In this document: piece after piece, positions 42,615 to 62,823 of the stretch
Position numbering within the stretch: the first letter of the stretch is position 1
Layout of the letters: each line of letters begins with the position of its first letter
NCBI RefSeq assembly: GCF_002355395.1
Contig: NZ_AP017315.1
Coordinates: 1-64,000, forward strand
DNA: 64,000 bases
Origin: Microcella alkaliphila
GTDB lineage: Bacteria > Actinomycetota > Actinomycetes > Actinomycetales > Microbacteriaceae
Reading direction: 5' to 3'
Translations under genes and position numbers: made by a program
Notes under the pieces: generated by a model
The model's input: only the letters and a program-made list of their open reading frames with translations
Database searches by the model: none
Told to the model about the DNA's origin: nothing

Positions 42615-44933
42615 GTGAGCGAGAACGTCGCGCCCGCCATCCCCCAGCCCGACACCGTCGACAACGCGATCGCGACGCCCGACAAGCACCAGCCGTACGA
42701 CGCGCTCGGGCTGAAGCCCGACGAGTACCAGCAGATCCGCGAGATCTTGGGCCGCCGGCCGACGAGCGGCGAGCTCGCCATGTACTCGGTGATGTGGAGC
42801 GAGCACTGCTCGTACAAGTCGTCGAAGGTGCACCTGCGCCAGTTCGGCCAGAAGGTGTCGGACGAGATGAAGACCCACCTCATGGTCGGCATGGGCGAGA
42901 ACGCCGGAGTCGTCGACATCGGCGAGGGCTGGGCGGTCACCTTCAAGATCGAGAGCCACAACCACCCCAGCTACATCGAGCCCTTCCAGGGCGCGGCCAC
43001 CGGCGTCGGCGGCATCGTGCGCGACATCATCTCGATGGGTGCCCGCCCCGTCGCCGTCATGGATGCTCTGCGCTTCGGCGCCATCGACCACCCCGACACG
43101 GCCCGCGTGCTGCCCGGCGTCGTCTCCGGCATCAGCTTCTACGGCAACTGCCTGGGGCTTCCGAACATCGGCGGCGAGACCTGGTTCGACCCGGTCTACC
43201 AGGCGAACCCGCTCGTCAACGCGCTCGCCGTCGGGGCCCTGCGCCACGAAGACCTGCACCTCGCGAACGCCCGCGGCGTCGGCAACAAGGTCGTGCTGTT
43301 CGGCGCCCGCACCGGCGGCGACGGCATCGGCGGTGCCTCGATTCTCGCCTCCGACACGTTTAGCGAGGGCGGCCCCACGAAGCGCCCCGCCGTGCAGGTC
43401 GGCGACCCGTTCGCCGAGAAGGTGCTCATCGAGTGCTGCCTTGAGCTCTACCGTGAGGGTCTCGTCGAGGGCATCCAAGACCTCGGCGCCGCCGGCATCT
43501 CGTGCGCGACGAGCGAGCTCGCCTCGAACGGCGACGGCGGCATGGTCGTCGACCTCGACCAGGTGCTCTTGCGCGACCCGTCGCTCACGGCCGAAGAGAT
43601 CCTGATGTCGGAAAGCCAGGAGCGAATGATGGCGATCGTCGAGCCCGACAAGCTCGACGCCTTCCTCGCCGTCACCGCCAAGTGGGACGTCGAGACCAGC
43701 GTGCTCGGCGAGGTCACCGACACGGGCCGCCTTGTCATCCACTGGCGCGGTGAGAAGATCGTTGACGTTGACCCGCGCACCGTCGCGGTCGACGGGCCCG
43801 TCTACAACCGGCCGATGCAGCGCCCCGAATGGCTGGATGCGCTCAACGCGAATTCCGCGCGCGCCCTGCCCCGCGCATCCGACGATTCTGAACTGCGCGC
43901 CCAGGCGCTGCAGGTTCTCGGCGGCCCGAACCAGGCCGACGCGAGCCTCATCACCAATCAGTACGACTACTACGTCATGGGCAACACGGCGCTCGCGATG
44001 CCGGATGACGCCGGGATGATCCGCATCGACGAAGAGAGCGGGCTCGGCGTCGCGCTCGCCACCGACGCGAATGGCCGCTACTGCCAGCTCGACCCGTACG
44101 CGGGCGCGCAGCTCGCGCTCGCCGAGGCGTACCGCAACGTCGCCGCGACCGGCGCGAGCCCCCGCGCCGTGAGCGACTGCCTGAACTTCGGCAGCCCCGA
44201 GAACCCCGAGGTGATGTGGCAGTTCGCCCGCGCCGTCGAGGGCCTCGCCGACGGCTGCCTCGAGCTCGGCATCCCGGTGACGGGCGGCAACGTGTCGTTC
44301 TACAACCAGACCGGCGACGTGCCGATTCACCCCACCCCCGTCGTCGCCGTCATGGGCGTCATCGACCACGTCGACCGCCGCCTGCCCTCGGGCTGGCAGG
44401 ATGAGGGCGAGAACCTCTACCTGCTGGGCGTCACCCGCGACGAGCTCGACGGCTCGGCCTGGGCGGGCGTCGTGCACGAGCACCTGGGCGGCGTGCCCCC
44501 GCTCGTCGACCTCGCGGCCGAGAAGAACCTCGCCGGGCTGATGGCGGCCGCTGCCGAGGAGGGACTCGTCACGAGCGCCCACGACCTCAGCGACGGTGGA
44601 CTCATCGCGACGCTCGCCGAGGGAGTGCTGCGCTTCGGCGTCGGCGCCCGCGTGTGGCTGACCGAGCTGATGGAGCGCGATCGTGTCGACGCGACCGCTG
44701 CGCTCTTCGCCGAATCAGGCGCCCGGATGCTCGTCTCCGTCGCGAGGGAAGACGACGTCAAGTTCCGTGGCCTCTGCGAGGGCCGGCTGGTCCCCGTCAC
44801 CCGCATCGGCGTCACCGACGGCGAGATCGACGGGTTGGATGTGCAAGACCGCTTCACGCTGTCGCACGCCGAGCTCGGCGCCGCCCACCGGCACACGCTG
44901 CCCGAGCGCTTCGGCGCGGTCGTCGGGGGTTAA
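42615..44933 (+). CDS. purL: FGAM synthase large subunit PurL (small form)
   Basis: A 772-residue small-type PurL that needs PurS and Pur[31 protein letters not shown] (catalytic His) and [13 protein letters not shown] are the N-terminal AIRS-like signature. GFGEGGP-like text ([14 protein letters not shown]), GGNVSFYNQ and the C-terminal AIRS-C domain complete the double-barrel architecture. GTG 42615. It ends 4 bases inside the convergent aminopeptidase gene, the boundary between the purine region and the accessory catabolic cluster. Confidence 0.96.
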
Positions 44934-46432
44934 GCCCTCTCCATCCACCTTTCGATCTCGCGTGCGGTGCGCGGAAAATCGGCAGACAGCAGTTCACAGC
45001 CGTGTTCGGTGAGGAGCACGTCGTCCTCGATGCGCACTCCGATTCCGCGAAACCGTTCTGGCACGCTTAAGTCGTCTTCGTGAAAGTAGAGTCCGGGCTC
45101 GATAGTGAAGACCATTCCCGGCTCGAGGAAGCCGTCTAGGTAGACCTGCTGGCGAGCACGTGAGCAGTCGTGTACGTCGAGCCCGAGGTGATGGCCCGTG
45201 CCGTGAATCATGAATCGGCGATGGTGCTGAGCCTCCCCATGGAGAGCGTCTTCGGCACTCACCGGAATCAGCCCCCACTCGCTCACATGGTGCGCGATCA
45301 CCCGCATCGCGGCGTCGTGCATGTCTCGGAAGCGGGCTCCCGGCTTTGCCGCCTCGCGTGCGGCATCTGCTGCCTCGAGCACGGCATCGTATACCTCTCG
45401 CTGGATGTCGGTGAAGGTGCCCGAGATCGGCACAGTGCGTGTGATGTCGGCGGTGTACAGGCTGTCAACCTCAACTCCCGCATCGAGGAGGAGGAGGTCT
45501 CCCTGACGAATAGGTCCATCATTGCGAGTCCAATGCAGGGTGCACGCGTGAGGCCCCGCTGCGACAATCGTCTCGTACCCAACACCGTGGCCTTCCACTC
45601 GTGCCCGCCGGTAGAACACACCTTCCACGAGTCGCTCTCCCCGGTCGTGGCCGACGCAGTCGCGCAGTTGGCTGATGACATCGTCGAAACCTCGCTGCGT
45701 GGCAGCGACAGCACGGCGCAACTCGGCAATCTCGAAAGCGTCCTTCACGAGGCGCATTTCGCTCAGTACTTGAGCGAGGTGCTCATCATCGTCCGTCGGG
45801 ATCATGCCGAGCTCCCCGTCGCGCCGGGTGCTAACGCTCCGCCGTCGGCGGTCGACGAGAGAGGTCACCGGTAGGTCGGCGTCCCTCAGCACAACCATTT
45901 CGCCATCCCACATCTCGAGTGCTTGCTCGAATTCATCAAGAGATTGAGTGTCAATTCCCAGCTCATCGGCGACCTGCTGAAGAGTGGGTCGACGACCAGT
46001 CCAGAGTTCGCCGACCTCATTGTTGGCGTAAAACTCGTCGGAGTCGTGCCCGGAAGATGGCCGAAAGAACAGGATGGCGCGATGGCCATGGACGATTGGT
46101 TCCAGCACGAGAATCGACCCAGCGACGGTGTCTGACCCCCACGCAGTGAGATGCGCGAAACCGGAATGTGGGCGGTACGTGTAGTACTGGTCATTCGCGC
46201 GGACCGCTTGCAACCCCGCCGGTATGATCACGGTTTTGCCCTCGAAGGCTGCAGACAGCCGGGCGCGACGACTCTGCGCAAATACAGCGGCATCGCGCAG
46301 CAGCCCGCGTTCGACCGACACCTCTGCCCAGCCCTGCCTGATGTAGCTGCGAAACGAATCTGACGTTGGGGTGGTGGAACGATTGCGGCTCGTCACCGGA
46401 ATGGGTTCGCCTGCGATCTGATCGTCGTTCAT
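44930..46432 (-). CDS. M24B aminopeptidase P (Xaa-Pro aminopeptidase)
   Basis: A 500-residue metallopeptidase. The N-terminal AMP_N domain spans about 45-185 ([13 protein letters not shown]...[10 protein letters not shown]). The pita-bread catalytic domain has all five metal ligands: D317 (LLLLDAGVE), D329 (TADITRT), H414 ([12 protein letters not shown]), E445 (FTIEPGLYF) and E469 (VRIEDD). It should remove N-terminal residues before proline from peptides, with Mn or Zn. Creatinase-like function is unlikely because the metal set is complete. It is the distal gene of the minus-strand cluster, 39 bases after the GNAT-AAA gene. Confidence 0.93.
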
Positions 46433-46471
46433 TCTGGCCCCTGTCTGCGTCGTTTCGGAGATGTAGTGATG

Positions 46472-47812
46472 TCAGGTTCGGGCGTACGAGCGAATGTCCG
46501 CCTGAAATTCAGCGAGCGTCGTCTCCGACACTGTCGGTCGAGTGTGCCGGATCGCGTCCACATAGGCAGCTGTCTGCGGCGCTACCCGTTGCCCTGTCGA
46601 GCCGTCGCACTGCATGGCAGCGTCGAACGCTCGTTGCGCGGCCTTTCGAGCAGCGAACTCGATGTCTGCGGGCGAGAATCGCTCGCTACTCTGCGCCAGC
46701 ACATCGACGTCGATGTGAGCGGCACCCTTCGGCAGGTAACGGCGCCACATGGCTTTTCGAGCCTCCATATCCGGAAGCCCGATAGGAATGACGTAGTCAA
46801 AGCGACCGTGCCGTAGCAGCGCGTCGTCAAGATGACGTATGAAGTTGGTGGCACAGATCAACAGACGTCCCTCGCGTTCGCGAAATGCTGGGATCGACTT
46901 GAGCAACTCATTCGTCACGCTGTGCGACTGCGTCGGGCGTGCCGCATCGCGTCGTGCGGCGACCTCGTCCACTTCATCGATGAACACAACGGCGTGCTCA
47001 AGCTCCGCGATCTCGAGAAATCGGGCGCGCAGTGCCCCGGCGAGTCCGGCGACGTCGCTCGCCAACCGTGAGGGGTGGAGTTCGACGAAGGGCCACCCCA
47101 GTCGACTGGCGATCGCTCGCGCAAATGACGTCTTCCCCGTACCGGGGGGGCCAAACAGGACAACTGCTCGCGGCGGGTGCACGCCGCACTCCTCAGCCAG
47201 ATCAGCGTGTGCAAGCGGGTCGATGAGCCGGCTTTCGATGAGCGCCTTCTCGTCAGCCATTCCTGCGAGCCGCATCCACAGATCCCGTGGGAGAAGTGAC
47301 CCACCAAGGGACGTAAGTGACTCGAGACTGGAACGATGCACCGGTACCTGACGGTCGAAGTACCACAGGGGTATCTCGCCCGTGTAGTCGCTGTTGCGAA
47401 ATGCCTTGAGCCTGTTCTCCGACTGGGGCAGCAAGGCCGACAGGCGAAACACGTTGCGCGTTGCAAGACGCGCTTCGAGCCCGGTCAGTAGGGCGCTCCC
47501 GAGACCTTGATCGCGCACGGCGGGATCCTGCGCGAACAAGAGGATCCAGGCTCTCTCCCCGTCGACTCGCGCGACTGCCGCTCCGATGACCCTGCCACCA
47601 TCCGTTACAACGACTCCGACCCCGTCGTCACAGGCTGAAACGGTCTCAGCCAACGTGTACACAGGGTTCCGCTGATCGGACGTCCATTCACGCCAAACTC
47701 GAACCACTCCCTCAAGGTGGTCAGGCCGATAGTCACGGACCGTCCACGGCTCCCGAGGCGGTGACGACCCTGTCGTCCTCAGAGAGGGCGCATCTTTCGT
47801 TGTCGACATCAC
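46472..47812 (-). CDS. Fusion of GNAT acetyltransferase and AAA ATPase
   Basis: A 446-residue two-domain protein. Residues about 22-155 are a GNAT domain (VRDYRPDHLEGVVRVW, then AWILLFAQDPAVRDQGLGSALL with the acetyl-CoA loop at 97-109). Residues about 185-440 are a classical AAA module: Walker A GPPGTGKT (221-228), Walker B VVFIDEVDE (275-283), sensor ATN (321-323) and RHGRFD (334-339) with the arginine finger. No membrane segment, protease or nuclease is attached. The start is GTG 47812 or ATG 47809; the upstream ribosome site is weak. A chaperone-like remodeller that acetylates its client is one reading. The role is unknown. Confidence 0.85.
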   Translation of the reverse strand: MMSTTKDAPSLRTTGSSPPREPWTVRDYRPDHLEGVVRVWREWTSDQRNPVYTLAETVSACDDGVGVVVTDGGRVIGAAVARVDGERAWILLFAQDPAVRDQGLGSALLTGLEARLATRNVFRLSALLPQSENRLKAFRNSDYTGEIPLWYFDRQVPVHRSSLESLTSLGGSLLPRDLWMRLAGMADEKALIESRLIDPLAHADLAEECGVHPPRAVVLFGPPGTGKTSFARAIASRLGWPFVELHPSRLASDVAGLAGALRARFLEIAELEHAVVFIDEVDEVAARRDAARPTQSHSVTNELLKSIPAFREREGRLLICATNFIRHLDDALLRHGRFDYVIPIGLPDMEARKAMWRRYLPKGAAHIDVDVLAQSSERFSPADIEFAARKAAQRAFDAAMQCDGSTGQRVAPQTAAYVDAIRHTRPTVSETTLAEFQADIRSYART

Positions 47813-47978
47813 TCAGTCGTATCCGAGGATGATGATCTGCGACGTGAGGACCTGCGTAAGCGCGAGTGAGTCGCCGTCGGGGGTATTCGGAGGGCTAGGT
47901 GCATTCGTCGGTGATTGCATGACACCACGGTGCCAGCACGGACGCGAGCACCGGTGTGCGGTGCGCCCAATCAACGAC

Positions 47979-48425
47979 TCACAAATTCAGCTTGGCATCC
48001 CGAAATGCGGGTACGAGTTGGGCAGCGATGGCCACAGCGGCGGCGACCGATTCGTCGGTGTATGCCCCCTCACGGTCAAGAAAATTGAGAGACCCGATGG
48101 TGATTCCCTCATCTCTCACCGGCACATTGATGATGGCACCGCATCCCAACGACTCGATGACAGTCGAGTCGAAGAAGAATTCGCGGACCGACGCGCGGTC
48201 AGGCCCGAAGAAGGGCAGCCCGCCTTGCACAACGCGTTCGAACCACATGGGCGACACTTGGCCGTCGATTAGCTTGCGGCCACCCACGGGATACACCGCC
48301 TCATCACTGGAATAGATCCGCGCCATGCTGGAGGCGCCGTCCGCGATGACAGAGCCGGTAAAGAGGATCACGCCCGGGTTCACCGTCGCGCGCTGGTGCG
48401 CTTCGGCCAGAGTGAGAGATGTCAT
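47979..48425 (-). CDS. GAF-domain protein
   Basis: A 148-residue protein that is one GAF-like domain: ADGASSMARIYSSDEAVYPVGG, an FFGPDRASVREFFFDSTVI middle and GCGAIINVPVRDEGITIGSLNFLDREGAYT, ending in the GAF C-terminal helix. Small stand-alone GAF proteins of this type accompany amide-degrading gene sets and may sense the substrate. The start overlaps the PucR-type stop by ATGA (48422-48425), so the two are coupled. The following 166 bases to the GNAT-AAA gene show no recognisable element. Confidence 0.75.
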   Translation of the reverse strand: MTSLTLAEAHQRATVNPGVILFTGSVIADGASSMARIYSSDEAVYPVGGRKLIDGQVSPMWFERVVQGGLPFFGPDRASVREFFFDSTVIESLGCGAIINVPVRDEGITIGSLNFLDREGAYTDESVAAAVAIAAQLVPAFRDAKLNL

Positions 48426-49918
48426 GACAATCCTTTCGACGTCGTGCGCGTCAGAGGTTCGATGCCGGGACCCTCGTGGTCACGGGGGAGAAAGGCGCGA
48501 ATGATGGCCTCGACAGAGAAGGACTGCCGAGGGTCACCAACGGGAAGCCCGAGCGCGCGCGCCCGGTCCAGTCGCGCTGTCATTGTGTTGCGATGCAGTG
48601 AGAGGCGGGCGGCTGCGGCAACAACCGAACCCTCGTCCAAGAAAGCGCGCACGCTCATGACCAGACGATCCCGATCATTCGCACGACAGAACTCAGGCAC
48701 AACTAGCTGAGCGACCGTGATCGCATCGCTTGGGTCGAACAGGTAGTCGATTGCTTGCAGGGTGAGCTCTTCGAACGAGCCGACACCTTCCGCCCCCGCT
48801 GCCCACGCAGTCCGGGAGGCTATTCGAGCCTCGGCAACTTGCTCCTGCAGATTGCCCGGCGAATCATACGCCCGTGATAGGCCGATACCGATTCCCAGCT
48901 CGCCCAGACTGGTCGCAAGTGCCGCTCCGAGTTCGCGGGAGACACGCGACGTGTCGTCATCCTCGCCGAGAGACACAACAGAGATCCAGCCGTCGGCAGT
49001 GTCCACTAATGACCTGTTTATCGCAGCCCTACGCCACAGCAGGCGGACGACGTTCGACATCGTGCGTGTCGGGCGCTTCCCCGGTGCGGCGAGGAAGACA
49101 ACGGCGTGCGCATCACCATCCCGCCATCCGAGACGGGGCATCACCGTCTGCAGAGCAAGGTTGTCGGGCATTGCTGCTTCGTCGATGGCAGCAACGGCCG
49201 AGAGCACATCGGCGAGGTCCAAGGCTCCTGACTCGAACCACGCTGCCCGAATCAGCGGCAGAATGAGTGTCAGTGCAGTCGTGACGAAGTCTTCGTTCTT
49301 GCCAGCGGTAGCCCAAAGGGTGACCGATCCGGATGCCGAATCGCTGATGGTGAGCGGCCCGACCATGGTGAGACCCTGGCTTTCGCGCTCACCCACAGTC
49401 GCGATAGTGATCTCTCCAAGCCGCAGTTCTAGACATAAGCGCAACTCGGCGGCTGCAACACGCAGAATCTCATCTACGGTCGTTTGCTCACCTACGGTTC
49501 GCAGCAAAGCGATGAGCTGCGACTCGATCGCAGCGTTTGCCGCACCGATATCCGCTGAAAGCGCGAGAGCCACGTTGGTAGGGTCGTCCGCTGTGCTCAA
49601 GAGCGTGATATCGAGGCGTCGCGCGAGAAGCACGACCGACTCCGAGTGCTGCCCGGCAGCAACGACAAGACTTGCTCGCCGCTCCCATGCAAGACGCAAG
49701 ACAGCCGAGACCAACCAGCCACTTGTCTCTGCACCCGACGCCACGATCACGGCCGTTCGCGGAGACACTCTGCGCGCTTGATCCGGCCTCGAGATCAGGG
49801 CAATGGAATCAATCGTCGGATTCTCTGCCGCACGGTGGATGGTGACGGTTCGCGAGAGTGCTCCCCGCTCAATGGCCGCGGCAACGTCAAGTTTTCGCGG
49901 AGAGTGCGGCGCTGTCAC
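48422..49918 (-). CDS. PucR-family transcriptional activator
   Basis: A 498-residue regulator from GTG 49918, which overlaps the DUF917 stop. A long sensory part (1 to about 300) shows no named fold that I recognise with certainty. The C-terminus carries the PucR helix-turn-helix: VMSVRAFLDEGSVVAAAARL and SLHRNTMTARLDRARALG (about 440-480). PucR proteins activate purine, amide or amino-compound catabolism genes when their inducer is present. It very likely controls this cluster, including the hyuA promoter about 10 kb upstream on the same strand. Confidence 0.85.
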   Translation of the reverse strand: MTAPHSPRKLDVAAAIERGALSRTVTIHRAAENPTIDSIALISRPDQARRVSPRTAVIVASGAETSGWLVSAVLRLAWERRASLVVAAGQHSESVVLLARRLDITLLSTADDPTNVALALSADIGAANAAIESQLIALLRTVGEQTTVDEILRVAAAELRLCLELRLGEITIATVGERESQGLTMVGPLTISDSASGSVTLWATAGKNEDFVTTALTLILPLIRAAWFESGALDLADVLSAVAAIDEAAMPDNLALQTVMPRLGWRDGDAHAVVFLAAPGKRPTRTMSNVVRLLWRRAAINRSLVDTADGWISVVSLGEDDDTSRVSRELGAALATSLGELGIGIGLSRAYDSPGNLQEQVAEARIASRTAWAAGAEGVGSFEELTLQAIDYLFDPSDAITVAQLVVPEFCRANDRDRLVMSVRAFLDEGSVVAAAARLSLHRNTMTARLDRARALGLPVGDPRQSFSVEAIIRAFLPRDHEGPGIEPLTRTTSKGLS

Positions 49919-50985
49919 TGTTTCGTCTCCGTGAAATTGAGCCCGAAAGCAGCGGGGCCGACGAGCGCTAGGCCATCCGATTCGTACCATTTCGGGTCAG
50001 CAGGCGTCTTCAAGACATCCAAGACATCGCCTACGCGCACGTCGTCGAGGCTGACGACCGACGCTTTCTCTGGGTCGATGAGGGTAATGATGTCGGGCAC
50101 GGCGGCAGCGACAGCACCGTCGACGAGCACCATGAGTATCTCGTTTTGGATCTCGATGCGAACGATGCGACCGTTTCCGTCGTCCGTGAGCGTGACGCTT
50201 GAGGGTTGGGCAGGAAGGGCAACATCAGAAGGCCCGAACGAACTTTCCACATATGCAACTTGTGCGCGCGCGACACGTGATGTCCCGACCTCATCCGAGA
50301 GCTTTCGATACTTCGCGGCAAGCGGTTCGCCACTGTCGAGGATCTGGCCCAGGGTGATCATGCGAGAGGCCGACCCAATGACGCCGTGCTCGCGCAGTTG
50401 AGAGGCCGTGCAGGGATACATTGCTGAAGCCGCCCATCCGCCCAGTTCCTCCGTTGCCGCCCGCACGAGGGCTTCCGCGCGGCGCGCATTGCCCACCTCT
50501 ATGAGGATCCGCTCTCCGTTGGCTCCCATCAACGCAACCGGCCCGATGTTTACGCCGGCAGCGTTCAGGGTCGTCTGGCTGATCAACGGAAACACCCGTC
50601 CCATGGGATCCGCATCCACAACCGGAATGCCGGCCTGCAAGGCCGTCAACATGGGGACGATCGCGTTCAAGTTCGCGGCGGCCAGAGGAAAGATCGCAGC
50701 GGCTCGACGTCCGATCGCGCGTTCGACCGCCGCGAGACAACCCAGCATTTCGTCGCCACACGGCGGCATTTCGGCCATCAGCAATCCCTGAGAGACGAGT
50801 CCGACGGCGACGACAAGGTCATCTGGTGCAAGATCGTCTAGAGAAGCGAGCATCAGAGAGCGAGAAGTCATCGCATTCCGGGTCATGTCCGCGTACATCA
50901 ACATTGTCGTCGGATCGATCGAGCACGCGAGAAATTGAGCGCCCAGCGCAACGCGGTCGACATCTTCCGGTGACAACGCCTTCAT
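49915..50985 (-). CDS. Divergent DUF917 (S-Me-THD family) protein
   Basis: A 356-residue protein from ATG 50985 (MKALSPEDVDRVALGAQFL). The DUF917 core is clear: NLNAIVPMLTALQAGIPVVDADPMGRVFPLISQTTLN, then an alpha/beta C-terminal half. In most members the N-terminus has a glycine-rich FLGTGGGGDPY loop; here the same place reads FLACSIDPTTM, so the loop is gone. The Pfam family is named S-methyl-thiohydantoin desulfurase, a metal-dependent enzyme type. Loss of the loop suggests altered or no catalysis. It overlaps both neighbours by ATGA/GTGA and is coupled to the degenerate HyuA-like protein. Confidence 0.75.
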   Translation of the reverse strand: MKALSPEDVDRVALGAQFLACSIDPTTMLMYADMTRNAMTSRSLMLASLDDLAPDDLVVAVGLVSQGLLMAEMPPCGDEMLGCLAAVERAIGRRAAAIFPLAAANLNAIVPMLTALQAGIPVVDADPMGRVFPLISQTTLNAAGVNIGPVALMGANGERILIEVGNARRAEALVRAATEELGGWAASAMYPCTASQLREHGVIGSASRMITLGQILDSGEPLAAKYRKLSDEVGTSRVARAQVAYVESSFGPSDVALPAQPSSVTLTDDGNGRIVRIEIQNEILMVLVDGAVAAAVPDIITLIDPEKASVVSLDDVRVGDVLDVLKTPADPKWYESDGLALVGPAAFGLNFTETKQ

Positions 50986-52280
50986 GTTGTCGCTCCCGCT
51001 CGAGCAGTGGTTTCCACCCAATCCCCGATGACCCGAGCGCGAATGCGAACGACATGGCGACTGCCGTACGCCAAGGTGTACGCGGTTGACTCAACCACTC
51101 GTGTCGACTCGGGGGCTGCTCCCCAGTGCACAATCTGCGACCGAAGATCTTCCTGTGTCGCTCGCAGCCAGCCGTCAAGTTCATCTGTGGCGGACGCATG
51201 ACCCAGGAAGTCGGACCATGCGCTGAGCGGTGCGATAGCGGCTCCGAGCGCGGTCAGGTCGACACGTGTGCGCACCGTCGACTCGAGATCGCTGCGCAGC
51301 AACACCTTGTCGCTCGATCGAGAATCGATAACCGCCGCTGGCCTCTCCGGTTCACCGAGGAGCGACGGCGAATACGGGTCGATGCGCGCAGCATTGCACG
51401 CGAGAGCGGGCTCGCGACCACGTCGAATGACTGTGTGTGTAGCCGGGACGCCTTCATGGACACGACCGGCCCGAACACCCGCGTCATCCACGATGACCAC
51501 TTCGCCCTCATTGACGCCGGCCAGATGTCGAGCACCCATCAAACCGAGTGCTGGGCTGGCGTGTAGGGCCTGAACTGGCGTTGCCCCCAATCGACGAATA
51601 GGAACGCGCCCCCCGTCGCTCACGGCGAAATAGACGAGCGCTCCCGGAAGGTGCGCCCGCGCGGCCTGTTCTATTTGTGCTGCAAGTTGATCTCCTGAGG
51701 AGACGAGACACGCATTCACGGCCGCGGTGTAGTCACGATCGCGAAAGGAGTTCGAGAAGAATTCGTTCGAAAGCGTCACCCGAGCGAAGGGAAATGCAGA
51801 CAAGAGCGCGTCAGCGGCCTGCTGCTCATGCTCCGGATTCGCCACCGACCCAACTGCCGTCACGGACGCGACGAGCTCGGTCTCCGATGGATAGCCGCTG
51901 AGCGCTGCGGCTAGTGCCCCCACATCGAGGTCCATAAGGGGCCGGCCACGCATATCGTGTCCGCCCGCCACATCGATGACCGTGAGTCGACTACCGCGCA
52001 GATCGTGAGGCACCGGCAGCTCATGTAGCGGATCGGCGGCCGGACGAGGACTGATCCTGACGGCGACGACCTGCCGCTCCCGCTCCATCGCGAGGAGGCC
52101 TCCGAGATCGACGGTGACCGAGCGGATCTCGGCGGCCGACCGGTGCGCGATCCAGTCGAGCAACTCGGGGAATGGATCTTCTTGACTGATGGAATGCGAA
52201 TACTCCCCGGCAACTTCTCCGTCGCCGTCGACGGCGACAACCGAGCACCGGTCTTTCTCGAGTCGGATTCCCGCGCGCAC
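50982..52280 (-). CDS. Degenerate HyuA-like hydantoinase/oxoprolinase protein
   Basis: A 432-residue protein with the hydantoinase A outline but degraded motifs. Recognisable parts are SVANPEHEQQAADALLSAFPFARVTLSNE, which aligns with the SPVNPxHExxAAEIL...VTLSHE segment, and VNACLVSSGDQLAAQIE. The first nucleotide loop, normally DxGGTxTD at the N-terminus, here reads GIRLEKDRCSVVAV. The second, normally VDVGGTTTD, reads IVDDAGVRAGRV. Both ATP phosphate loops are therefore missing. It is coupled to the DUF917 gene by ATGA. A non-catalytic sensor or scaffold is plausible. GTG 52280; weak ribosome site. Confidence 0.65.
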   Translation of the reverse strand: MRAGIRLEKDRCSVVAVDGDGEVAGEYSHSISQEDPFPELLDWIAHRSAAEIRSVTVDLGGLLAMERERQVVAVRISPRPAADPLHELPVPHDLRGSRLTVIDVAGGHDMRGRPLMDLDVGALAAALSGYPSETELVASVTAVGSVANPEHEQQAADALLSAFPFARVTLSNEFFSNSFRDRDYTAAVNACLVSSGDQLAAQIEQAARAHLPGALVYFAVSDGGRVPIRRLGATPVQALHASPALGLMGARHLAGVNEGEVVIVDDAGVRAGRVHEGVPATHTVIRRGREPALACNAARIDPYSPSLLGEPERPAAVIDSRSSDKVLLRSDLESTVRTRVDLTALGAAIAPLSAWSDFLGHASATDELDGWLRATQEDLRSQIVHWGAAPESTRVVESTAYTLAYGSRHVVRIRARVIGDWVETTARAGATT

Positions 52281-52336
52281 GTCAAACCACGGCCTGCAAG
52301 GTCAACGGTGATCGCGGCATAGTAAGAGCACCTAGC

Positions 52337-53335
52337 TCAAGAGTTTCGCTTCTTGAAGAACAGGCTATCGGCCGCGATAGCGATGAGAATCAGAGCCCCT
52401 GTGACAACCTGCTGATAGGTCGTGTCCCACTGGAGCAGATTGAACCCGTTGGCGATCACCGTCAGGATCATTACTCCGACAAAGGCCCGCCACACCGCAC
52501 CCTGACCGCCCATGATGCTCGTGCCACCGATCACGACCGCGGCGATCGCCGTCAGTTCTAGGCCCGTGGCCATCCCGGGTTGTGCCGAGCCAGCCCGCGA
52601 GATCATCACGAGTCCGGCGAGCGCCGAACACGCCCCGCTGATCGCGAATACTCCGATCCTGACGGCACCGGTACGGATCCCGCTCAGTCTCGCCGCCTCG
52701 GCGTTGCCGCCCACCGCATAGATTCGGCGCCCATACGTGGTTTTTGCGAGCATGAGGCCGAACACGACAACAGTGACGCCGAACAAGATGGACGCCCAGG
52801 TCAGACCGAATGGCCCCCGCTCAGCAAAAATGCGGAACGATCCGGCGATCTCGGCCGGGGGCGACACAATGGCGCCCGCCGTGAGCACGATGGCGAGCCC
52901 GCGATAAATGATGCTAATCGCCAAAGTGCCAATGAACGAGTTGACCTTCGTGGAGACGATGATGAGCCCTGTAATGGCGCCCAAGAGAGTTCCGGCCACG
53001 ATGGCACCGATAAATCCGGCAGCGAAACCGAATGTCTGCGAGATCCAGATTCCGGTGATCGCGGAGACGGCCAGGGTCGCCGTCGCGGACAAGTCGAATA
53101 CCCCGCTGATGATGCACAATGTGGCGCCGACGGCGAGGAGGCCGACCACGGTCGCCTGATCAATGAGGTTGATGAGGTTTCCCGGGGTGAGGAAGGTGGT
53201 GGTACTCACCGAGAGCGCCAGCACAATCGCGAGCAAGCCGAAAGCGATGCCGAAGTCGCGGAGTTTGGACTGGAGGCGTTTCACGCCCCAGGGCTTGTCC
53301 GAGCGTTCGGACGTGGGTGGGAGCAGAGCGGTCAT
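52337..53335 (-). CDS. Ribose-type ABC transporter permease
   Basis: A 332-residue RbsC-like protein with about ten membrane helices. Family text includes LINLIDQATVVGLLAVGATLCIISGVFDLS (the EAA-equivalent start), TGLIIVSTKVNSFIGTLA and YAVGGNAEAARLSGI. ATG 53335 is chosen over a longer frame that would run into the ATPase gene. It forms the membrane channel with the double ATPase encoded 7 bases upstream on its strand. Confidence 0.92.
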   Translation of the reverse strand: MTALLPPTSERSDKPWGVKRLQSKLRDFGIAFGLLAIVLALSVSTTTFLTPGNLINLIDQATVVGLLAVGATLCIISGVFDLSATATLAVSAITGIWISQTFGFAAGFIGAIVAGTLLGAITGLIIVSTKVNSFIGTLAISIIYRGLAIVLTAGAIVSPPAEIAGSFRIFAERGPFGLTWASILFGVTVVVFGLMLAKTTYGRRIYAVGGNAEAARLSGIRTGAVRIGVFAISGACSALAGLVMISRAGSAQPGMATGLELTAIAAVVIGGTSIMGGQGAVWRAFVGVMILTVIANGFNLLQWDTTYQQVVTGALILIAIAADSLFFKKRNS

Positions 53336-53342
53336 CCGAGAC

Positions 53343-54863
53343 TCATTTCGTGAATGCGGAGGTGAGGATGTCAGAGGGCTGTGCCGAACGATCGAACTCG
53401 TCGACGATGCGGCCATGCCGCATTACAAGCACACGATGCGAGAGGCGGATCACCTCATCGAGCTCAGAGCTGACCACGAGAACCGCAGTGCCGCGTTCGG
53501 CGAGGTCTCGAATGAGACTGTGGATACGCGCTTTGGCGGCAACGTCGACGCCCCTCGTCGGCTCGTCCACCATCAGGAGCGCGGGTGGATGGAGTAGCCA
53601 CCGGGCAAACAGCGCTTTTTGCTGATTCCCGCCGGACAAGTCAACAGTCAGAGTGTCGGGGCCAACGCCACGAAGGTCAACGTCAACAGACACGGTGTCG
53701 ACGGCGACTTTCTCCTCCCGCCGTCGCACCCAGCCGCCAAAAGATCTCTTCGCCAATGTGCCGAGAGCAACGTTCTCGGTTACGGAGCGACCGAGCAGTA
53801 AACCCTGATCCTTGCGCGACTCGGGTACCAGAGCCATTCCGCTCGCGATTGCTGATGACACGGAATTTTCTTTCACCGCATCACCCCGAATGAGGATGGT
53901 GCCGGCACGACGCGGCTCGGCACCGAGGAGGCCGAGCAGCACATCGCTTCGGCCGCTGCCCACAAGGCCGGCGAGACCGAGGATCTCACCTTGGCGCAGT
54001 GTGAACGAGATGTCGTGGACATGCCGTGTTTCGAGCCCCTGGACCTCGACGACGATCTCCGCGAGCGACGACACCTCGGCGGGAGGGTGATCGATGGGGT
54101 CGACCTCGCGTCCGATCATGAGCGAGACAATCGAGGTGGGTGTGTACGCAGAAGACGCGCCTGTCTCGATGAGCTTGCCGTCGCGAAGGACTGTCACCCG
54201 GTCGGCGAGACCGAGCACTTCTTCGAGGAAGTGGGAGACGATGATGATTGTTGTGCCCCGGTCGGCAATTTCTCTGACAACCCGCAACAACTGCGCTTTC
54301 TCGACCTCGTTCAGCGCGGCAGTCGGCTCGTCCATGCACAGCACCCGGGCACCGCGCGCCAGCGCCTTGAGAATTTCTACCTGCTGCTGAAGCCCGAGAG
54401 GGAGATCGCCAACGATGGCATCTGGATCGAGTGTGAACCCAGTCTGTTCGAGCAGCTCCTCAAAACGAACTCGATCAGCGGCGAGATGTGCAAAGCCAGC
54501 CCGATGCGACCAGCGCCCAAGCATGACGTTCTCCAGCACCGAGCGCTGAGGAATGACCGCGAGCTCTTGACTGATGAGGGTGATGCCGTGATGAATCGCG
54601 TCACGCGGGGAGCCCAGGGCGACGGGCTCACCGTCGAGAAGGAGCGAACCGGAGGTCGCCGCGATCGCGCCGCCCAGTATTTTCAGCAGAGTACTTTTAC
54701 CCGCGCCGTTTTCCCCCAAGATCGCATGGATCTCGCCCGCACCGATGGTGAGATCGACATTGTCGAGCACGGTGGTCGATCCGTAAGCCTTCGAGGCTCC
54801 GCGCACCTCGATTCGCGCTACTGACGTCGATGCGACGTCAGCGTCGTGCTCTGCATGAGACAT
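53343..54863 (-). CDS. Ribose-type ABC transporter ATPase (two cassettes)
   Basis: A 506-residue RbsA-like protein. Cassette 1: Walker A GENGAGKSTLLKILGG, signature LGLQQQVEILKAL, Walker B VLCMDEPTAAL. Cassette 2 has the usual degenerate Walker A (GLVGSGRSDVLLGL), intact signature LSGGNQQKALFARW and LMVDEPTRGVD. One active and one weak site is normal for sugar importers of this group. ATG 54863. Between it and the binding-protein gene lies a strong stem-loop that may lower its expression relative to that gene. Confidence 0.94.
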   Translation of the reverse strand: MSHAEHDADVASTSVARIEVRGASKAYGSTTVLDNVDLTIGAGEIHAILGENGAGKSTLLKILGGAIAATSGSLLLDGEPVALGSPRDAIHHGITLISQELAVIPQRSVLENVMLGRWSHRAGFAHLAADRVRFEELLEQTGFTLDPDAIVGDLPLGLQQQVEILKALARGARVLCMDEPTAALNEVEKAQLLRVVREIADRGTTIIIVSHFLEEVLGLADRVTVLRDGKLIETGASSAYTPTSIVSLMIGREVDPIDHPPAEVSSLAEIVVEVQGLETRHVHDISFTLRQGEILGLAGLVGSGRSDVLLGLLGAEPRRAGTILIRGDAVKENSVSSAIASGMALVPESRKDQGLLLGRSVTENVALGTLAKRSFGGWVRRREEKVAVDTVSVDVDLRGVGPDTLTVDLSGGNQQKALFARWLLHPPALLMVDEPTRGVDVAAKARIHSLIRDLAERGTAVLVVSSELDEVIRLSHRVLVMRHGRIVDEFDRSAQPSDILTSAFTK

Positions 54864-54881
54864 GGAGAACTCCTCGACGGG

Positions 54882-54909
54882 AGGGAGCCGCCCGTGTGGG
54901 CGGCTCCCT
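54882..54909 (-). terminator. Stem-loop between binding-protein and ATPase genes
   Basis: A perfect 12-bp stem (54882-54893 with 54898-54909) closes a 4-base loop GTGT. On the minus strand it sits 8 bases after the binding-protein stop and just before the ATPase start, with no T-run. Such intercistronic hairpins stabilise the upstream message and allow excess binding protein over the membrane parts. Confidence 0.75.
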
Positions 54910-54917
54910 GAGCGTAC

Positions 54918-55949
54918 CTAGTCGGTGTACCCGGCAGTGAAGTCAACCGCGTCGAGGGCGGCCTTGGTTCCTCTGCCCCTGTTCGGGGCAAGCGTCGTCT
55001 GGTCGAGAGACATCTCAACCGTTTCTCCGCGAGCGAGAGCGAGTCCGAGCTCGGTCGCTTTCCTGCCGTTGGCAACGACATCCTGCACGAACACCGCGAA
55101 CCAGTCTCCGTTGCGAACCGACTCGACGTTCGTCTGTGAGGCACCGTTACCGATGAACAGCACATCCGAGTCGCCTGCCACGTCGGCCGCGCCGACGATC
55201 GCGGGCGAAGCGCCGATAACGACGTCGACATCAGGGTTCGCCTGCAGGACGTTCTGGAAGGCAGCGCGACCACTGTCGGCCGCGTATCCGCCTTCCACAC
55301 TGGCGACAAGCTCAATCGTGTCGTCGGTAGCGAGCGTTGCCTTTACCGCCTCGGTGCGAGCGTTGTCGAGCGGAAGCGCGCGGAAGCCCTCGAGGTAGGC
55401 GACCTGGCACGGCTTCGCCTCGACCGTCGCGCACGCTTCGATACCCAGCTCTGCCAGTGCAACGCCATTGTCAGTTGGCAGCTCTACGGTGCTGATGGCG
55501 CCGTCGACCTGCGGCTCGATCGTCGTTAAGTCGGGACCGACCACCGAAAACTCAACAACAACCGTAATTCCGGCGTCGACGGCTTCTTGAAGCGGGGCCT
55601 GAAGCGCCACATTGTCATTGGCCTGGATGACAATCACGTCGAACTGGCGCGAGGTGATCGCGTCACGAACCTGCTGAACCTGCGCCTGGCCGTCGAAAGC
55701 TCCGTCGACGAAGGTAGCCGTCGCATTGTTCTCTGCGGCGGCCTGCTCGACGCCAACGAACGTGCCCTGTGCGAACCCGTTGATGGCGGCAAATCCGAAG
55801 AATCCGACCGAGAGCGTCTCCTGCTCGGAACTCGGCGACTCTGGGGCCGCTGGTGCTGGGGCCGGCGCCTCTGCAGCTCCGGAACATCCGGAGAGGAACA
55901 GTGCGGCGCCGAGCGCCCCGGCTACTAATGATGCAAATCGTGTCTTCAT
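54918..55949 (-). CDS. Ribose-type substrate-binding lipoprotein
   Basis: A 343-residue periplasmic-binding-protein-like lipoprotein. The signal has the lipobox LSGC (Cys about residue 22), followed by an Ala/Pro/Glu linker to about residue 45. The type I fold shows VGFFGFAAINGFAQGTFVGVEQA and DVIVIQANDNVALQAPLQEAVDAGITVV, as in RbsB/XylF-like proteins. DNGVALAELGIEACATVEAKPC carries a Cys pair that may be disulfide-bonded. It captures the cluster's substrate outside the membrane. It starts 3 bases after the hyuB stop, so the importer is expressed with the hydantoinase. Confidence 0.92.
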   Translation of the reverse strand: MKTRFASLVAGALGAALFLSGCSGAAEAPAPAPAAPESPSSEQETLSVGFFGFAAINGFAQGTFVGVEQAAAENNATATFVDGAFDGQAQVQQVRDAITSRQFDVIVIQANDNVALQAPLQEAVDAGITVVVEFSVVGPDLTTIEPQVDGAISTVELPTDNGVALAELGIEACATVEAKPCQVAYLEGFRALPLDNARTEAVKATLATDDTIELVASVEGGYAADSGRAAFQNVLQANPDVDVVIGASPAIVGAADVAGDSDVLFIGNGASQTNVESVRNGDWFAVFVQDVVANGRKATELGLALARGETVEMSLDQTTLAPNRGRGTKAALDAVDFTAGYTD

Positions 55950-55952
55950 GAT

Positions 55953-57656
55953 CTAGTCCTTCTCTTGCGTGATGGGGGTGGACGGATAGTGCAACTCAGC
56001 GAACTCAGGAGTGATGTAGCCGTTGGCGATGTCATCGGCCACTGCCTGAGCGTCTCGCTGCTGAGGGTCGCCGTAGCCGCCACCCCCACCGACAGCAAGG
56101 CGTACGACATCGCCCGCTTTCATCGGCCGAGCGTTGGCTTTCAGCGTGCGTACTTCATCAGCGCGTCCTGGATTAATGACGACCTCAGGGCCGGCGGAGT
56201 CACACCCTCCGAAAAGGCCCCAGGCAGGGGTGATTGATCGCTCGAACCACAAACCGACGACGCAGTCTGAAAGGAATTCGTACTCCCGCACGACGCCGTT
56301 GCCCCCACGCCACCGACCAGGACCGCCCGAATTAGGCCGAATCGAGTACTCAGTGATCCTGAGCGGGAACCGCGTCTCCATCATCTCGATCGGCAGGTCC
56401 CGCAGTGAACCGTTGACGTTGTTGATGAGGGCGGATTCGCCATCCGATCCCTCCCAGGCACCCCAGCCGCCGAGCGTCGCCTCGATCGACACGAAGTTAC
56501 GCCCGACGCGGGGATCAAGGCCCGCGACAGTGATGATCATCGAGTCACCGTGACTCGCCGCTGCCACCCTGTCGGGCAGCGCGGGCGCCAACGCCCGAGA
56601 GACGAGGTCGATAAGCAAGCCCAGGTGGGAGAAATACCATTGACAGGCCGCGGGCGCGACAGCTCCCAGGACGGAACCGCTGCGTACTTGCGTGGTCATG
56701 GGGCGGAAGGAGCCGCCATTGGAATTCGCGTGAGGGCTAATCAACAGTTTGTAGCCGACGCGGAGCCCCGAGATGGCCTGGGCGACGCCACAGTTCACCG
56801 GCCCGCGTGTCTGATCTGCTGACTCGGTGACGTCGAAGTCGATGCTGTCGCCGACCACAGTGATGCGCAGCTTGATCGGTACCGGGCGATCCAAGTCGAT
56901 TCCATCGTTGTCGAGAACACCCTCGGCCTCGTAGATCCCGTCGGGGATCGCCGCGACAGCCTCGCGCTCAAGCACCTCCGTCTGACGGAAGATCTCCTCG
57001 CTCGCGGCCTGGAGGACGTCGATCCCGTAACGTCCGACGAGCTCGGTCATCCGGTTCATGCCCATTCGGAGCGCGGCGATCATTGCATTCATGTCGCCGA
57101 TCGTCTGATAGGGGAAACGAACGTTCGTCTTGATGAGATCAATGACCGAGGTTTCTGCGCCTCCCTCGATGAGCTTGACCGGGCCCATCCTGAAGCCCTC
57201 TTGGAAGATATCGACGGAGTCCATCGACCCTCCGACGTCTTTCGAGCCCATGTCCATCCAGTGAGCACGAGTCGCCGCGAACCCGACGAGCATGCCGTCA
57301 GTGAAGATGGGCGCGAAGATCGTCACGTCATTGAGGTGAGTTCCGCCTAGGTAGGAGTCGTTCAGGATCCAGATATCACCCTCTTTCCACACCTCGACGC
57401 CGAACTGTTGCTCGACTGCGATGGAGCAGTACTCCAAGTTGCCGAGGAAGAGGGGCAACCCTGCTGACTGCCCAAGCACGCGATGCTGGGTGTCGAGAAT
57501 GGCCACGACACAGTCGCCGCCTTCGTAGATGATCGGCGAGTACGCCGAACGAATGAGCGTCGCGTTCATATCATCCGCCGCGCTCGTCAGTGCGTTCCTA
57601 ATGATCTCGACCGTGACCGGATCGAGTGCTTCCATGGTGGAAGTGGCCATGATCAT
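55953..57656 (-). CDS. hyuB: Hydantoinase/oxoprolinase subunit B
   Basis: A 567-residue HyuB. The N-terminus DPVTVEIIRNALTSAADDMNATLIRSAYSPIIYEG is diagnostic, followed by ILNDSYLGGTHLNDVTIFAPIF and a Gly-rich GGPGRWRGGNGVVREYEFL segment. With HyuA it makes an ATP-dependent amidohydrolase that opens hydantoin, oxoproline or related cyclic amides. Start codon at 57656 overlaps the hyuA stop by ATGA; ATG 57650 (MATSTM) is an alternative. Length and motifs are normal. Confidence 0.93.
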   Translation of the reverse strand: MIMATSTMEALDPVTVEIIRNALTSAADDMNATLIRSAYSPIIYEGGDCVVAILDTQHRVLGQSAGLPLFLGNLEYCSIAVEQQFGVEVWKEGDIWILNDSYLGGTHLNDVTIFAPIFTDGMLVGFAATRAHWMDMGSKDVGGSMDSVDIFQEGFRMGPVKLIEGGAETSVIDLIKTNVRFPYQTIGDMNAMIAALRMGMNRMTELVGRYGIDVLQAASEEIFRQTEVLEREAVAAIPDGIYEAEGVLDNDGIDLDRPVPIKLRITVVGDSIDFDVTESADQTRGPVNCGVAQAISGLRVGYKLLISPHANSNGGSFRPMTTQVRSGSVLGAVAPAACQWYFSHLGLLIDLVSRALAPALPDRVAAASHGDSMIITVAGLDPRVGRNFVSIEATLGGWGAWEGSDGESALINNVNGSLRDLPIEMMETRFPLRITEYSIRPNSGGPGRWRGGNGVVREYEFLSDCVVGLWFERSITPAWGLFGGCDSAGPEVVINPGRADEVRTLKANARPMKAGDVVRLAVGGGGGYGDPQQRDAQAVADDIANGYITPEFAELHYPSTPITQEKD

Positions 57657-59701: not shown

Positions 59702-60010
59702 GTGCGCTCCTTTGCGTGTGGGGGAAAAGGTAACTTCGGGGCCAACACGCGAAATGTGTGTGCTGCACATATGGTTGTACGAAAATCGTGCAGGGTGTCG
59801 AGGCGGCACTCCTGTGCCTCGTCAGGCTCGACGACAGCTGAGTGCGTGGCCTTCACACGGCTACGCGCACTCACGACGTGACTCTGTCGGGAAGGGCGCT
59901 GAGCCAGGAGCTCGTGGATCGACTCCGCGCCTCGTCGCACTCTGCCCCGGCAAGATCAGCGCCGACCGCACGCCCACCCGCGCCGCTACCTTGGCCGGTA
60001 GGCTCTCGAC
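59702..60010. promoter_or_regulatory. Divergent promoter region of hyuA and the P-type ATPase
   Basis: A 309-base spacer with no gene. On the hyuA side it has two small palindromes: TGTGCTGCACA (59759-59769) and ACGAAAATCGT (59779-59789), the AT-richest part of the spacer and a likely PucR or promoter target. The half nearer the P-type ATPase is GC-rich, and I see nothing definite in it. Confidence 0.35.
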
Positions 60011-62485: not shown

Positions 62486-62574
62486 GGCGCGCGGCCGTGG
62501 GCGTACCCGCGTGCCGCGCCGCGCATCCCTGCCAGCGCACCCCGGGCATCCCGGCCGCCATCGCATGCGCTCGT

Positions 62575-62659
62575 TACGTTTTGCAGGAGTAGGGGCTGAG
62601 CCCGCGCGTCTGTGGCGCTGAAATCCGGGCACCGGCCGTCTGAACTCCTGCAATACGTA
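62575..62659. repeat. 16-base inverted repeat arms around a 53-base centre
   Basis: TACGTTTTGCAGGAGT (62575-62590) and ACTCCTGCAATACGTA (62644-62659) are complementary at 15 of 16 positions. The arms are far more AT-rich than the surrounding spacer. The 53-base centre contains a small GGGCTGAGCCC palindrome. The layout resembles a dispersed extragenic palindrome or the ends of a miniature element. Confidence 0.65.
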
Positions 62660-62726
62660 CGGTGTGCCGACATAGAGCGCGGGCCGCAGCCGGTGGCCAG
62701 GCGCAGTGCGGGCCGCACACAGGAAA

Positions 62727-62755
62727 CGGGCCCCGCGACCACCGCGCGGGGCCCG
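62727..62755. terminator. Bidirectional GC hairpin
   Basis: CGGGCCCCGCG (62727-62737) pairs perfectly with CGCGGGGCCCG (62745-62755). T-rich runs occur on both flanks (GTTTTCC downstream on plus, GTTTCC on minus). It sits between two convergent genes and could end both transcripts. Confidence 0.7.
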
Positions 62756-62823
62756 AACCGTTTTCCGGGGAGGGCAGGCCCAGGCATGCCCGCCCACCCC
62801 GGAAGCTTTGCCGGCAGAGGCGC

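What the first reader, a model, noticed from the sequence alone, without database searches (positions are those of the whole stretch)
49915..52280. Degenerate HyuA-DUF917 pair that lost both signature loops
HyuA-like proteins and DUF917 proteins are frequent partners. Here both are present and translationally coupled, yet the HyuA-like protein has lost both ASKHA nucleotide loops (GIRLEKD and IVDDAGVRAG in place of DxGGTxTD) and the DUF917 protein has lost the N-terminal glycine-rich loop (FLACSIDPTT). The frames are intact and lie directly upstream of PucR and GAF genes, while a fully normal HyuA-HyuB pair exists 5 kb away. That pattern suggests the pair was kept as a non-catalytic sensor or partner complex, possibly signalling to PucR, rather than decaying.
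Basis: partly seen in the sequence, partly recalled or inferred. Interest (0 to 1): 0.72.

Follow-up and report, generated by a model that had tools for sequence, protein, structure and literature searches.

The report
ATP-site-less HyuA–DUF917 pair beside PucR
Two neighbouring proteins that resemble halves of a ring-opening enzyme have both lost their energy-binding loops, yet stay intact in many soil bacteria beside a working enzyme and a gene switch, so they probably now do something else, perhaps sense a chemical.

Summary
The 432-aa HyuA-like protein (52280-50982, sHyuA) lacks the phosphate-1, phosphate-2 and adenosine motifs; its DUF917 partner (true start 50985) lacks the Gly loop and a second Gly-rich stretch. 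This is family-wide: DxGGT in 0 of 77 sHyuA sequences (redundant set), against 77 of 77 canonical ones. Folds are kept; both genes are under purifying selection (dN/dS 0.14 and 0.07, one species pair). In 35 of 35 loci DUF917 follows sHyuA; PucR follows in 34 of 34 readable ones. 'Conserved, without ATP site, not decaying' is well supported. 'Sensor for PucR' is only the leading guess (0.45), with an ATP-independent enzyme close behind (0.33). New variant of a known kind.

The parts
50982..52280 (-). sHyuA: 432-aa HyuA-fold protein without ATP-binding motifs
52251..52271 (-). GIRLEKD, sHyuA residues 4-10, in place of the phosphate-1 loop DxGGTxTD
51465..51494 (-). IVDDAGVRAG, sHyuA residues 263-272, in place of the phosphate-2 loop
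49915..50985 (-). DUF917 / S-Me-THD-like protein, 356 aa, ATG start
   Evidence: PF06032 113.2 bits, PF20906 130.4 bits; AF2 pLDDT 90.7; TM 0.82 to 2o3i_A
50905..50934 (-). FLACSIDPTT, DUF917 residues 18-27, where canonical members have the GTGGGG loop
50665..50682 (-). DUF917 residues 102-107, in place of a second Gly-rich stretch (E-x-G-G-x-N)
   Evidence: E102 in 0 of 30, G104 in 2 of 30, G105 in 5 of 30, N107 kept in 30 of 30
50982..50985 (-). ATGA overlap: sHyuA stop / DUF917 start
   Evidence: a 4-nt overlap option in 23 of 35 loci
49915..49918 (-). GTGA overlap: DUF917 stop / PucR start
   Evidence: a 1-8 nt overlap option in 33 of 34 readable loci; similar in canonical loci
48422..49918 (-). 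PucR-type regulator, 498 aa from GTG
   Evidence: HTH_30 42.8 bits, GGDEF_2 32.4 bits
47979..48425 (-). GAF-domain protein, 148 aa, overlapping the PucR stop by 4 nt
   Evidence: PF01590 22.5 bits, cut-off 22.4; ORF coordinates
52337..53416 (-). ABC permease
   Evidence: PF02653 135.8 bits
53343..54863 (-). ABC ATPase
   Evidence: PF00005, two stretches
54918..55949 (-). substrate-binding protein
   Evidence: PF13407 111.8 bits
55953..57656 (-). HyuB, full length; HLND at 107 and H132 fit the CapB metal-ligand pattern
   Evidence: PF02538 542.9 bits; CapB ligands from passages of PMC8453981
57653..59809 (-). HyuA, full length, all three ATP motifs present
44930..59809 (.). low-GC block (about 0.62; flanks at 42-44.5 kb and 60-63 kb about 0.69-0.74) that holds the whole cassette

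Best explanation
The pair is a stable derivative of the HyuA-DUF917 two-protein system that has no ATP site left (shown) and is kept as a unit with PucR, next to an intact-looking ATP-dependent HyuA-HyuB ring-opening enzyme and usually a transporter (shown). Inferred: sHyuA and DUF917 form a heteromer that binds the substrate or product of HyuAB without ATP-driven turnover and passes that state to the overlapping PucR gene's product (perhaps also to the GAF protein), which controls the cassette. By analogy this resembles ROK repressors, where an ASKHA sugar-kinase fold serves as ligand sensor (ROK behaviour is recalled, not tested). Shown by sequence: loss of the ATP motifs in sHyuA and of the Gly loops in DUF917, purifying selection, synteny. 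Inferred: complex, ligand, contact with PucR.
For: Both phosphate-loop first Asp residues are absent in 44 of 44 non-redundant sHyuA (one row, P0012, lacks the N-terminal stretch), while 24 of 118 canonical conserved columns are kept. In CapA, alanine at the first Asp of either phosphate loop nearly abolished conversion (passages of PMC8453981). In DUF917, 17 of the 24 lost columns lie at residues 13-137, the N-terminal domain, and several follow strands of the model. D58, P78, R79, G144, G224 and W355 are invariant in 44 of 44 sHyuA and rare or absent in canonical HyuA. dN/dS 0.144 and 0.065. A DUF917/PucR overlap of 1-8 nt is possible in 33 of 34 loci. In 13 loci of one architecture sHyuA evolves about as fast as PucR and five times faster than the HyuA enzyme beside it: mean distances 1.05, 1.22, 0.21. 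In G014, G085, G129 and G244 a more distant HyuAB and transporter go with the same sHyuA-DUF917-PucR unit.
Against: PucR adjacency and overlap are also found with ATP-competent HyuA-DUF917 loci: 16 of 20 and 11 of 20. DUF917 keeps D124, D126, R130, N281, E282, D298 in 30 of 30, as a catalyst would. Tree-distance correlations do not single out PucR once loci with the distant HyuAB are left out (all pairs 0.89-0.99). No complex could be modelled; only single chains were predicted. Fast change in sHyuA could equally mean a structural subunit.
Confidence: 0.45

Rival explanations
1. The pair is an ATP-independent enzyme: DUF917 catalyses a hydration or isomerisation on a hydantoin-like ring before or after HyuAB acts, and sHyuA is its structural or substrate-holding partner.
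For: NCBIfam names two DUF917-family equivalogs as enzymes, S-methyl thiohydantoin desulfurase and thiohydantoin desulfurase; the window protein matches them weakly, 65.4 and 52.7 bits. Conserved polar residues retained. DUF917 is more conserved than sHyuA or PucR. An Asp/Glu/hydantoin racemase, MFS transporter and amidohydrolase lie in some related loci.
Against: Far under the equivalog cut-offs of 450 and 440 bits. Gly loops and E102 lost, E134 replaced by L in 29 of 30. Conservation alone does not show catalysis.
Confidence: 0.33
2. sHyuA and DUF917 are accessory subunits of the HyuAB holoenzyme (scaffold or allosteric), like the second HyuA-like subunit of acetophenone carboxylase.
For: HyuB in 32 of 35 loopless loci, the other three cut by contig ends, against 1 of 20 chosen canonical loci within 10 kb. 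Apc-alpha' is a HyuA-like subunit without contact to the beta subunit (passages of PMC5214803).
Against: Apc-alpha' keeps the ATP motifs (same passages); sHyuA has none. In several loci sHyuA-DUF917-PucR is transcribed away from or apart from HyuAB, and the unit is the same where HyuAB is of a more distant group. CapAB works as two subunits.
Confidence: 0.17
3. The pair is decaying.
For: 70 of 118 conserved columns lost in sHyuA and 24 of 65 in DUF917. In Arthrobacter sp. Hiyo8 (L024) sHyuA is broken, but HyuA and HyuB are broken there too, so poor assembly is likely.
Against: dN/dS 0.144 and 0.065; confident folds; recurrence in three families; new invariants.
Confidence: 0.02

Closest known systems
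HyuA / ASKHA alpha subunits of ATP-dependent amidohydrolases and ketone carboxylases (CapA 6yra, NMHase 9h03, Apc 5l9w, acetone carboxylase 5svb)
   Same: Fold over nearly the whole length; R75, G106-G107, E152, R182, N189, D222-G223, P279 kept
   Different: Phosphate-1, phosphate-2 and adenosine motifs gone; 432 aa against about 500-545 for DUF917-linked HyuA and about 700 for HyuAB-type HyuA
DUF917 / S-Me-THD family (PF06032 + PF20906; 2o3i; NF058532, NF058529)
   Same: Both Pfam domains far over cut-off, fold of 2o3i, DAD-x-MGR-x-x-P and the N281-E282 and P297-D298 residues
   Different: Gly loop and second Gly stretch lost, E134 to L, far below the equivalog cut-offs
Canonical HyuA-DUF917(-DUF917)-PucR operons of Actinobacteria
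   Same: Order HyuA, DUF917, PucR with short overlaps in many loci
   Different: HyuA keeps ATP motifs, DUF917 keeps GGGG, often 2-3 DUF917 copies, HyuB within 10 kb in only 1 of 20 chosen loci
ROK repressors (e.g. Lmo0178, 5f7r)
   Different: No DNA-binding part in sHyuA; the regulator is a separate protein; a mechanistic analogy from recall only

Membership tests
ATP-dependent HyuA (ASKHA) | HyuA fold | tested here: met
ATP-dependent HyuA (ASKHA) | phosphate-1 DxGGTxTD | tested here: not met
   DxGGT in 0 of 77 sHyuA, redundant, some starting late; first Asp 0 of 44
ATP-dependent HyuA (ASKHA) | phosphate-2 DxGGT | tested here: not met
   first Asp (window position 263) 0 of 44; no displaced copy
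ATP-dependent HyuA (ASKHA) | adenosine motif GxxPGP | tested here: not met
   absent in the window protein; the matching G-x-x-S-V-G columns of canonical HyuA are deleted in 44 of 44
ATP-dependent HyuA (ASKHA) | ATP binding | not testable with these tools
   needs protein
DUF917 / S-Me-THD-like | both Pfam domains over cut-off and 2o3i fold | tested here: met
DUF917 / S-Me-THD-like | N-terminal Gly-rich loop | tested here: not met
   window protein has no GGG; loop columns lost in the clade except G573/G812
S-methyl thiohydantoin desulfurase (NF058532) | equivalog score cut-off 450 bits | tested here: not met
   65.4 bits
Apc-alpha'-like accessory subunit | second HyuA-like subunit with conserved ATP motifs | tested here: not met
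PucR co-sensor | physical or genetic interaction with PucR | not testable with these tools
   only synteny and overlap, shared with canonical loci

The most novel reading that the evidence does not exclude
A two-protein ATP-dependent enzyme was converted as a unit into an ATP-free ligand-sensing complex: an ASKHA pseudo-ATPase plus a pseudo-DUF917 that together report the HyuAB substrate to a co-translated PucR activator, a kind of co-sensor that I know of for no PucR regulator.
Probability: 0.4. Interest if true: 0.72.

Novelty: new variant of a known kind. Interest (0 to 1): 0.52.

Why it matters
It is a natural experiment: two partner proteins lost their glycine- and phosphate-loop sites in the same lineage while the rest of each fold stayed, and an intact HyuAB is next door. 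If the pair is a sensor, it would explain how hydantoin- or lactam-type catabolic cassettes recognise their substrate. If it is an enzyme, it would show this DUF917 branch working without an ATP-binding partner. Either way it gives a handle on DUF917: a 2024 paper calls the family not experimentally characterised (passages of PMC11055893), although NCBIfam names two desulfurase equivalogs in it.

Tried and rejected
Rejected: plain decay. Displaced ATP motifs elsewhere in sHyuA: none found. PucR linkage as evidence for a new signalling role: the control loci show it too. Tree-distance correlation as a discriminator: r 0.94-0.98 within sHyuA/DUF917/PucR against 0.55-0.86 with HyuA/HyuB over 30 loci, but this comes from loci with a more distant HyuAB; without them all pairs lie at 0.89-0.99. 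Order of loss: one branch of the loopless clade (G573 with its near-copy G812) keeps GGGG in DUF917, so HyuA-first is possible, but the tree needs fewer steps for loss and regain; left open. Whether sHyuA is nearer to DUF917-linked or to HyuAB-type HyuA is unresolved (long branches meet, root unknown). A sigma-70-like promoter scan found none; no tRNA in the window.

The HyuB control was first read as 0 of 20 in the fetched stretches. On re-checking, one of the 20 genomes (G454) has a HyuB just outside the stretch, about 9 kb from its HyuA-DUF917 pair; 14 of the 20 genomes have no HyuB at all, and in the other five it lies on another contig or more than 200 kb away. The same check showed that 1 of the 35 canonical HyuA rows (L143) is a fragment of a HyuAB-type HyuA; DUF917 linkage of the database rows P0050-P0060 in that set was not tested.

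Papers: 'DUF917' gave 4 papers, 'thiohydantoin desulfurase' 0, 'methyl thiourocanate' 0, 'methylhydantoinase'+'ATP' 31 of which 20 were listed, 'oxoprolinase'+'acetophenone carboxylase' 5, 'thiohydantoin'+'ergothioneine' 2, 'hydantoinase'+'PucR' 4, 'hydantoinase'+'pseudoenzyme' 0, 'hydantoinase'+'ASKHA' 2. Of three papers I saw passages; of the rest the listing only. Foldseek matches for DUF917 other than 2o3i had E above 0.04.

Full report
OBSERVATION. The window lies in a 2.70 Mb single-contig genome; the nearest named locus is that of Microcella alkaliphila AC4r. On the minus strand a run of genes reads HyuA, HyuB, substrate-binding protein, ABC ATPase, permease, a 432-aa HyuA-like protein (sHyuA), DUF917, PucR and GAF. 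The DUF917 start is most likely ATG 50985, an ATGA overlap with sHyuA; DUF917 and PucR overlap by GTGA, and PucR and GAF by 4 nt. The neighbouring HyuA has all three ATP motifs, and HyuB fits the His/Asp pattern of the CapB metal site (motif roles from passages of PMC8453981 and PMC5214803).

EXTENT OF THE LOSS. A search of the large protein set (only the 7997 candidates sharing most words were scored) gave 62 proteins: 49 of sHyuA type, the window's own included, and 13 canonical ones. No sHyuA of 77 (a redundant set that includes the window) has DxGGTx(x)D, against 77 of 77 canonical sequences with at least one; 57 of these have two, and most of the other 20 are cut at the N-terminus. A few database sHyuA also start late, so phosphate-1 cannot be judged in them. 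On a non-redundant alignment of 44 sHyuA and 35 canonical HyuA (one of the 35 a HyuAB-type fragment), 118 columns are at least 90% conserved in the canonical set; 24 are kept and 70 lost in sHyuA, among them the Asp residues of both phosphate loops. D58, P78, R79, G144, G224 and W355 are invariant in 44 of 44 sHyuA and rare or absent in the canonical set. For DUF917, 65 columns are at least 90% conserved in 29 canonical sequences (11 more, divergent copies were set apart); in 30 partners of sHyuA 30 columns are kept and 24 lost. The lost ones include GTGGGG, G65, E102, G104 and G105; D124, D126, R130, N281, E282 and D298 are kept. E134, E in 24 of 29 canonical sequences, is L in 29 of 30. The loss is patterned rather than even.

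SELECTION AND RATES. Against M. alkaliphila AC4r, dN/dS is 0.144 for sHyuA and 0.065 for DUF917; the other nine genes compared lie between 0.031 and 0.163. In 13 loci of one architecture the mean pairwise distances are sHyuA 1.05, PucR 1.22, DUF917 0.56, GAF 0.64, HyuA 0.21, HyuB 0.18. sHyuA thus changes at a regulator-like pace, five times that of the enzyme subunit it resembles.

DISTRIBUTION. A pattern-based search of the GTDB contigs gave 23 distinct loci, 22 of them sHyuA loci of Microcella, Arthrobacter, Pseudarthrobacter, Paenarthrobacter and Sinomonas. In the window's own family 7 of 299 genomes, own included, have a full-length sHyuA; none of the 5 other genomes listed for its genus has one. 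In another family (f26), probably Streptomycetaceae because its DUF917 group with named Kitasatospora proteins, 6 of 249 genomes have one. With the Arthrobacter-type family (f2) that makes three families. The window, the 22, and the 6 and 6 further ones give 35 loci. In 35 of 35 DUF917 follows on the same strand, and in 34 of 34 readable loci PucR follows on that strand; the 35th, G230, ends inside a partial PucR. sHyuA forms one group (100/100, with long-branch warnings), and its DUF917 partners fall in one clade (100/98). In this genome the cassette lies in a block of GC about 0.62 from about 44.9 to 60.0 kb, with 0.69-0.74 in the stretches next to it (42-44.5 kb and 60-63 kb); GC is low again at 40-41.5 kb. 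With the patchy spread this points to horizontal gain.

THE HYUAB ASSOCIATION. A HyuB is found in 32 of 35 loopless loci. The other three (G230, G573, G700) run into contig ends and carry HyuB on other contigs. In 20 canonical HyuA-DUF917 loci that I chose, the fetched stretches of up to 20 kb hold a HyuB in 0, although the same profile finds distant HyuB at about 340 bits. A whole-genome check of these 20 genomes corrects this a little: one, G454, has a HyuB just beyond its stretch, about 9 kb from the pair; 14 of 20 have no HyuB at all; in the other five it is on another contig or more than 200 kb away. So 1 of 20 within 10 kb. The transporter varies: an ABC system in one architecture; in another an MFS protein with an Asp/Glu/hydantoin racemase and an oxidoreductase. 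In G014, G085, G129 and G244 HyuAB and the ABC genes are of a more distant group while sHyuA-DUF917-PucR stays. The trio is a unit that goes along with HyuAB-type enzymes.

A PucR lies in 16 of the 20 canonical stretches (in five of these it has no same-strand DUF917 directly before it), and in 11 of 20 a DUF917 stop overlaps a possible PucR start by 1-10 nt. The PucR connection therefore predates, or is independent of, the loss of the loops.

INTERPRETATION. Shown: a conserved HyuA-fold protein without ATP motifs, paired with a DUF917 that lost its Gly loops, under purifying selection, tied to HyuAB and PucR. Inferred: that the two form a complex and bind a HyuAB-related ligand. I favour a sensing role (0.45) because of the loss of sites in both partners, the pace of sHyuA and the unbroken tie to PucR. 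An ATP-independent enzyme (0.33) is close, because DUF917 keeps a polar core and two related equivalogs are named as desulfurases. An accessory role in a HyuAB holoenzyme is third (0.17).

NOVELTY. Full-text searches found 4 papers naming DUF917 and none with both hydantoinase and pseudoenzyme. PMC11055893 (passages) states that DUF917 proteins were not experimentally characterised. I saw no description of this loopless pair in those searches; the library lacks most subscription papers. I call it a new variant of a known kind.

Noticed in passing
window 44930-59809: A roughly 15 kb block of GC about 0.62, with higher GC on both sides, holds the whole cassette plus a GNAT/AAA+ protein (46472-47812) and an M24 aminopeptidase P-like gene (44930-46432); likely one horizontally gained island.
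   Followed up: partly
window 59861-63091: A 1076-aa open frame with no Pfam or NCBIfam match but 78% identical in M. alkaliphila over the part held; it overlaps the SSF symporter gene, so its true start is probably later.
   Followed up: no
L125-L127, L129-L132, L134, L135, L141: Canonical operons often carry two or three DUF917 copies, the last one next to and overlapping a PucR; in most it is a divergent copy.
   Followed up: partly
L012:14444-15739: An amidohydrolase beside GAF scores best against Xaa-Pro dipeptidase (238 bits, cut-off 500), a hint that the cassette substrate may be a proline-containing cyclic dipeptide or similar lactam; speculative.
   Followed up: no
window 46472-47812: One frame carries both GNAT acetyltransferase and AAA+ ATPase domains; 94% identical in M. 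alkaliphila.
   Followed up: no
L123 and L169 (G573, G812): DUF917 with an SSGGGG loop beside a fully loopless sHyuA: a possible intermediate or a regained loop.
   Followed up: partly
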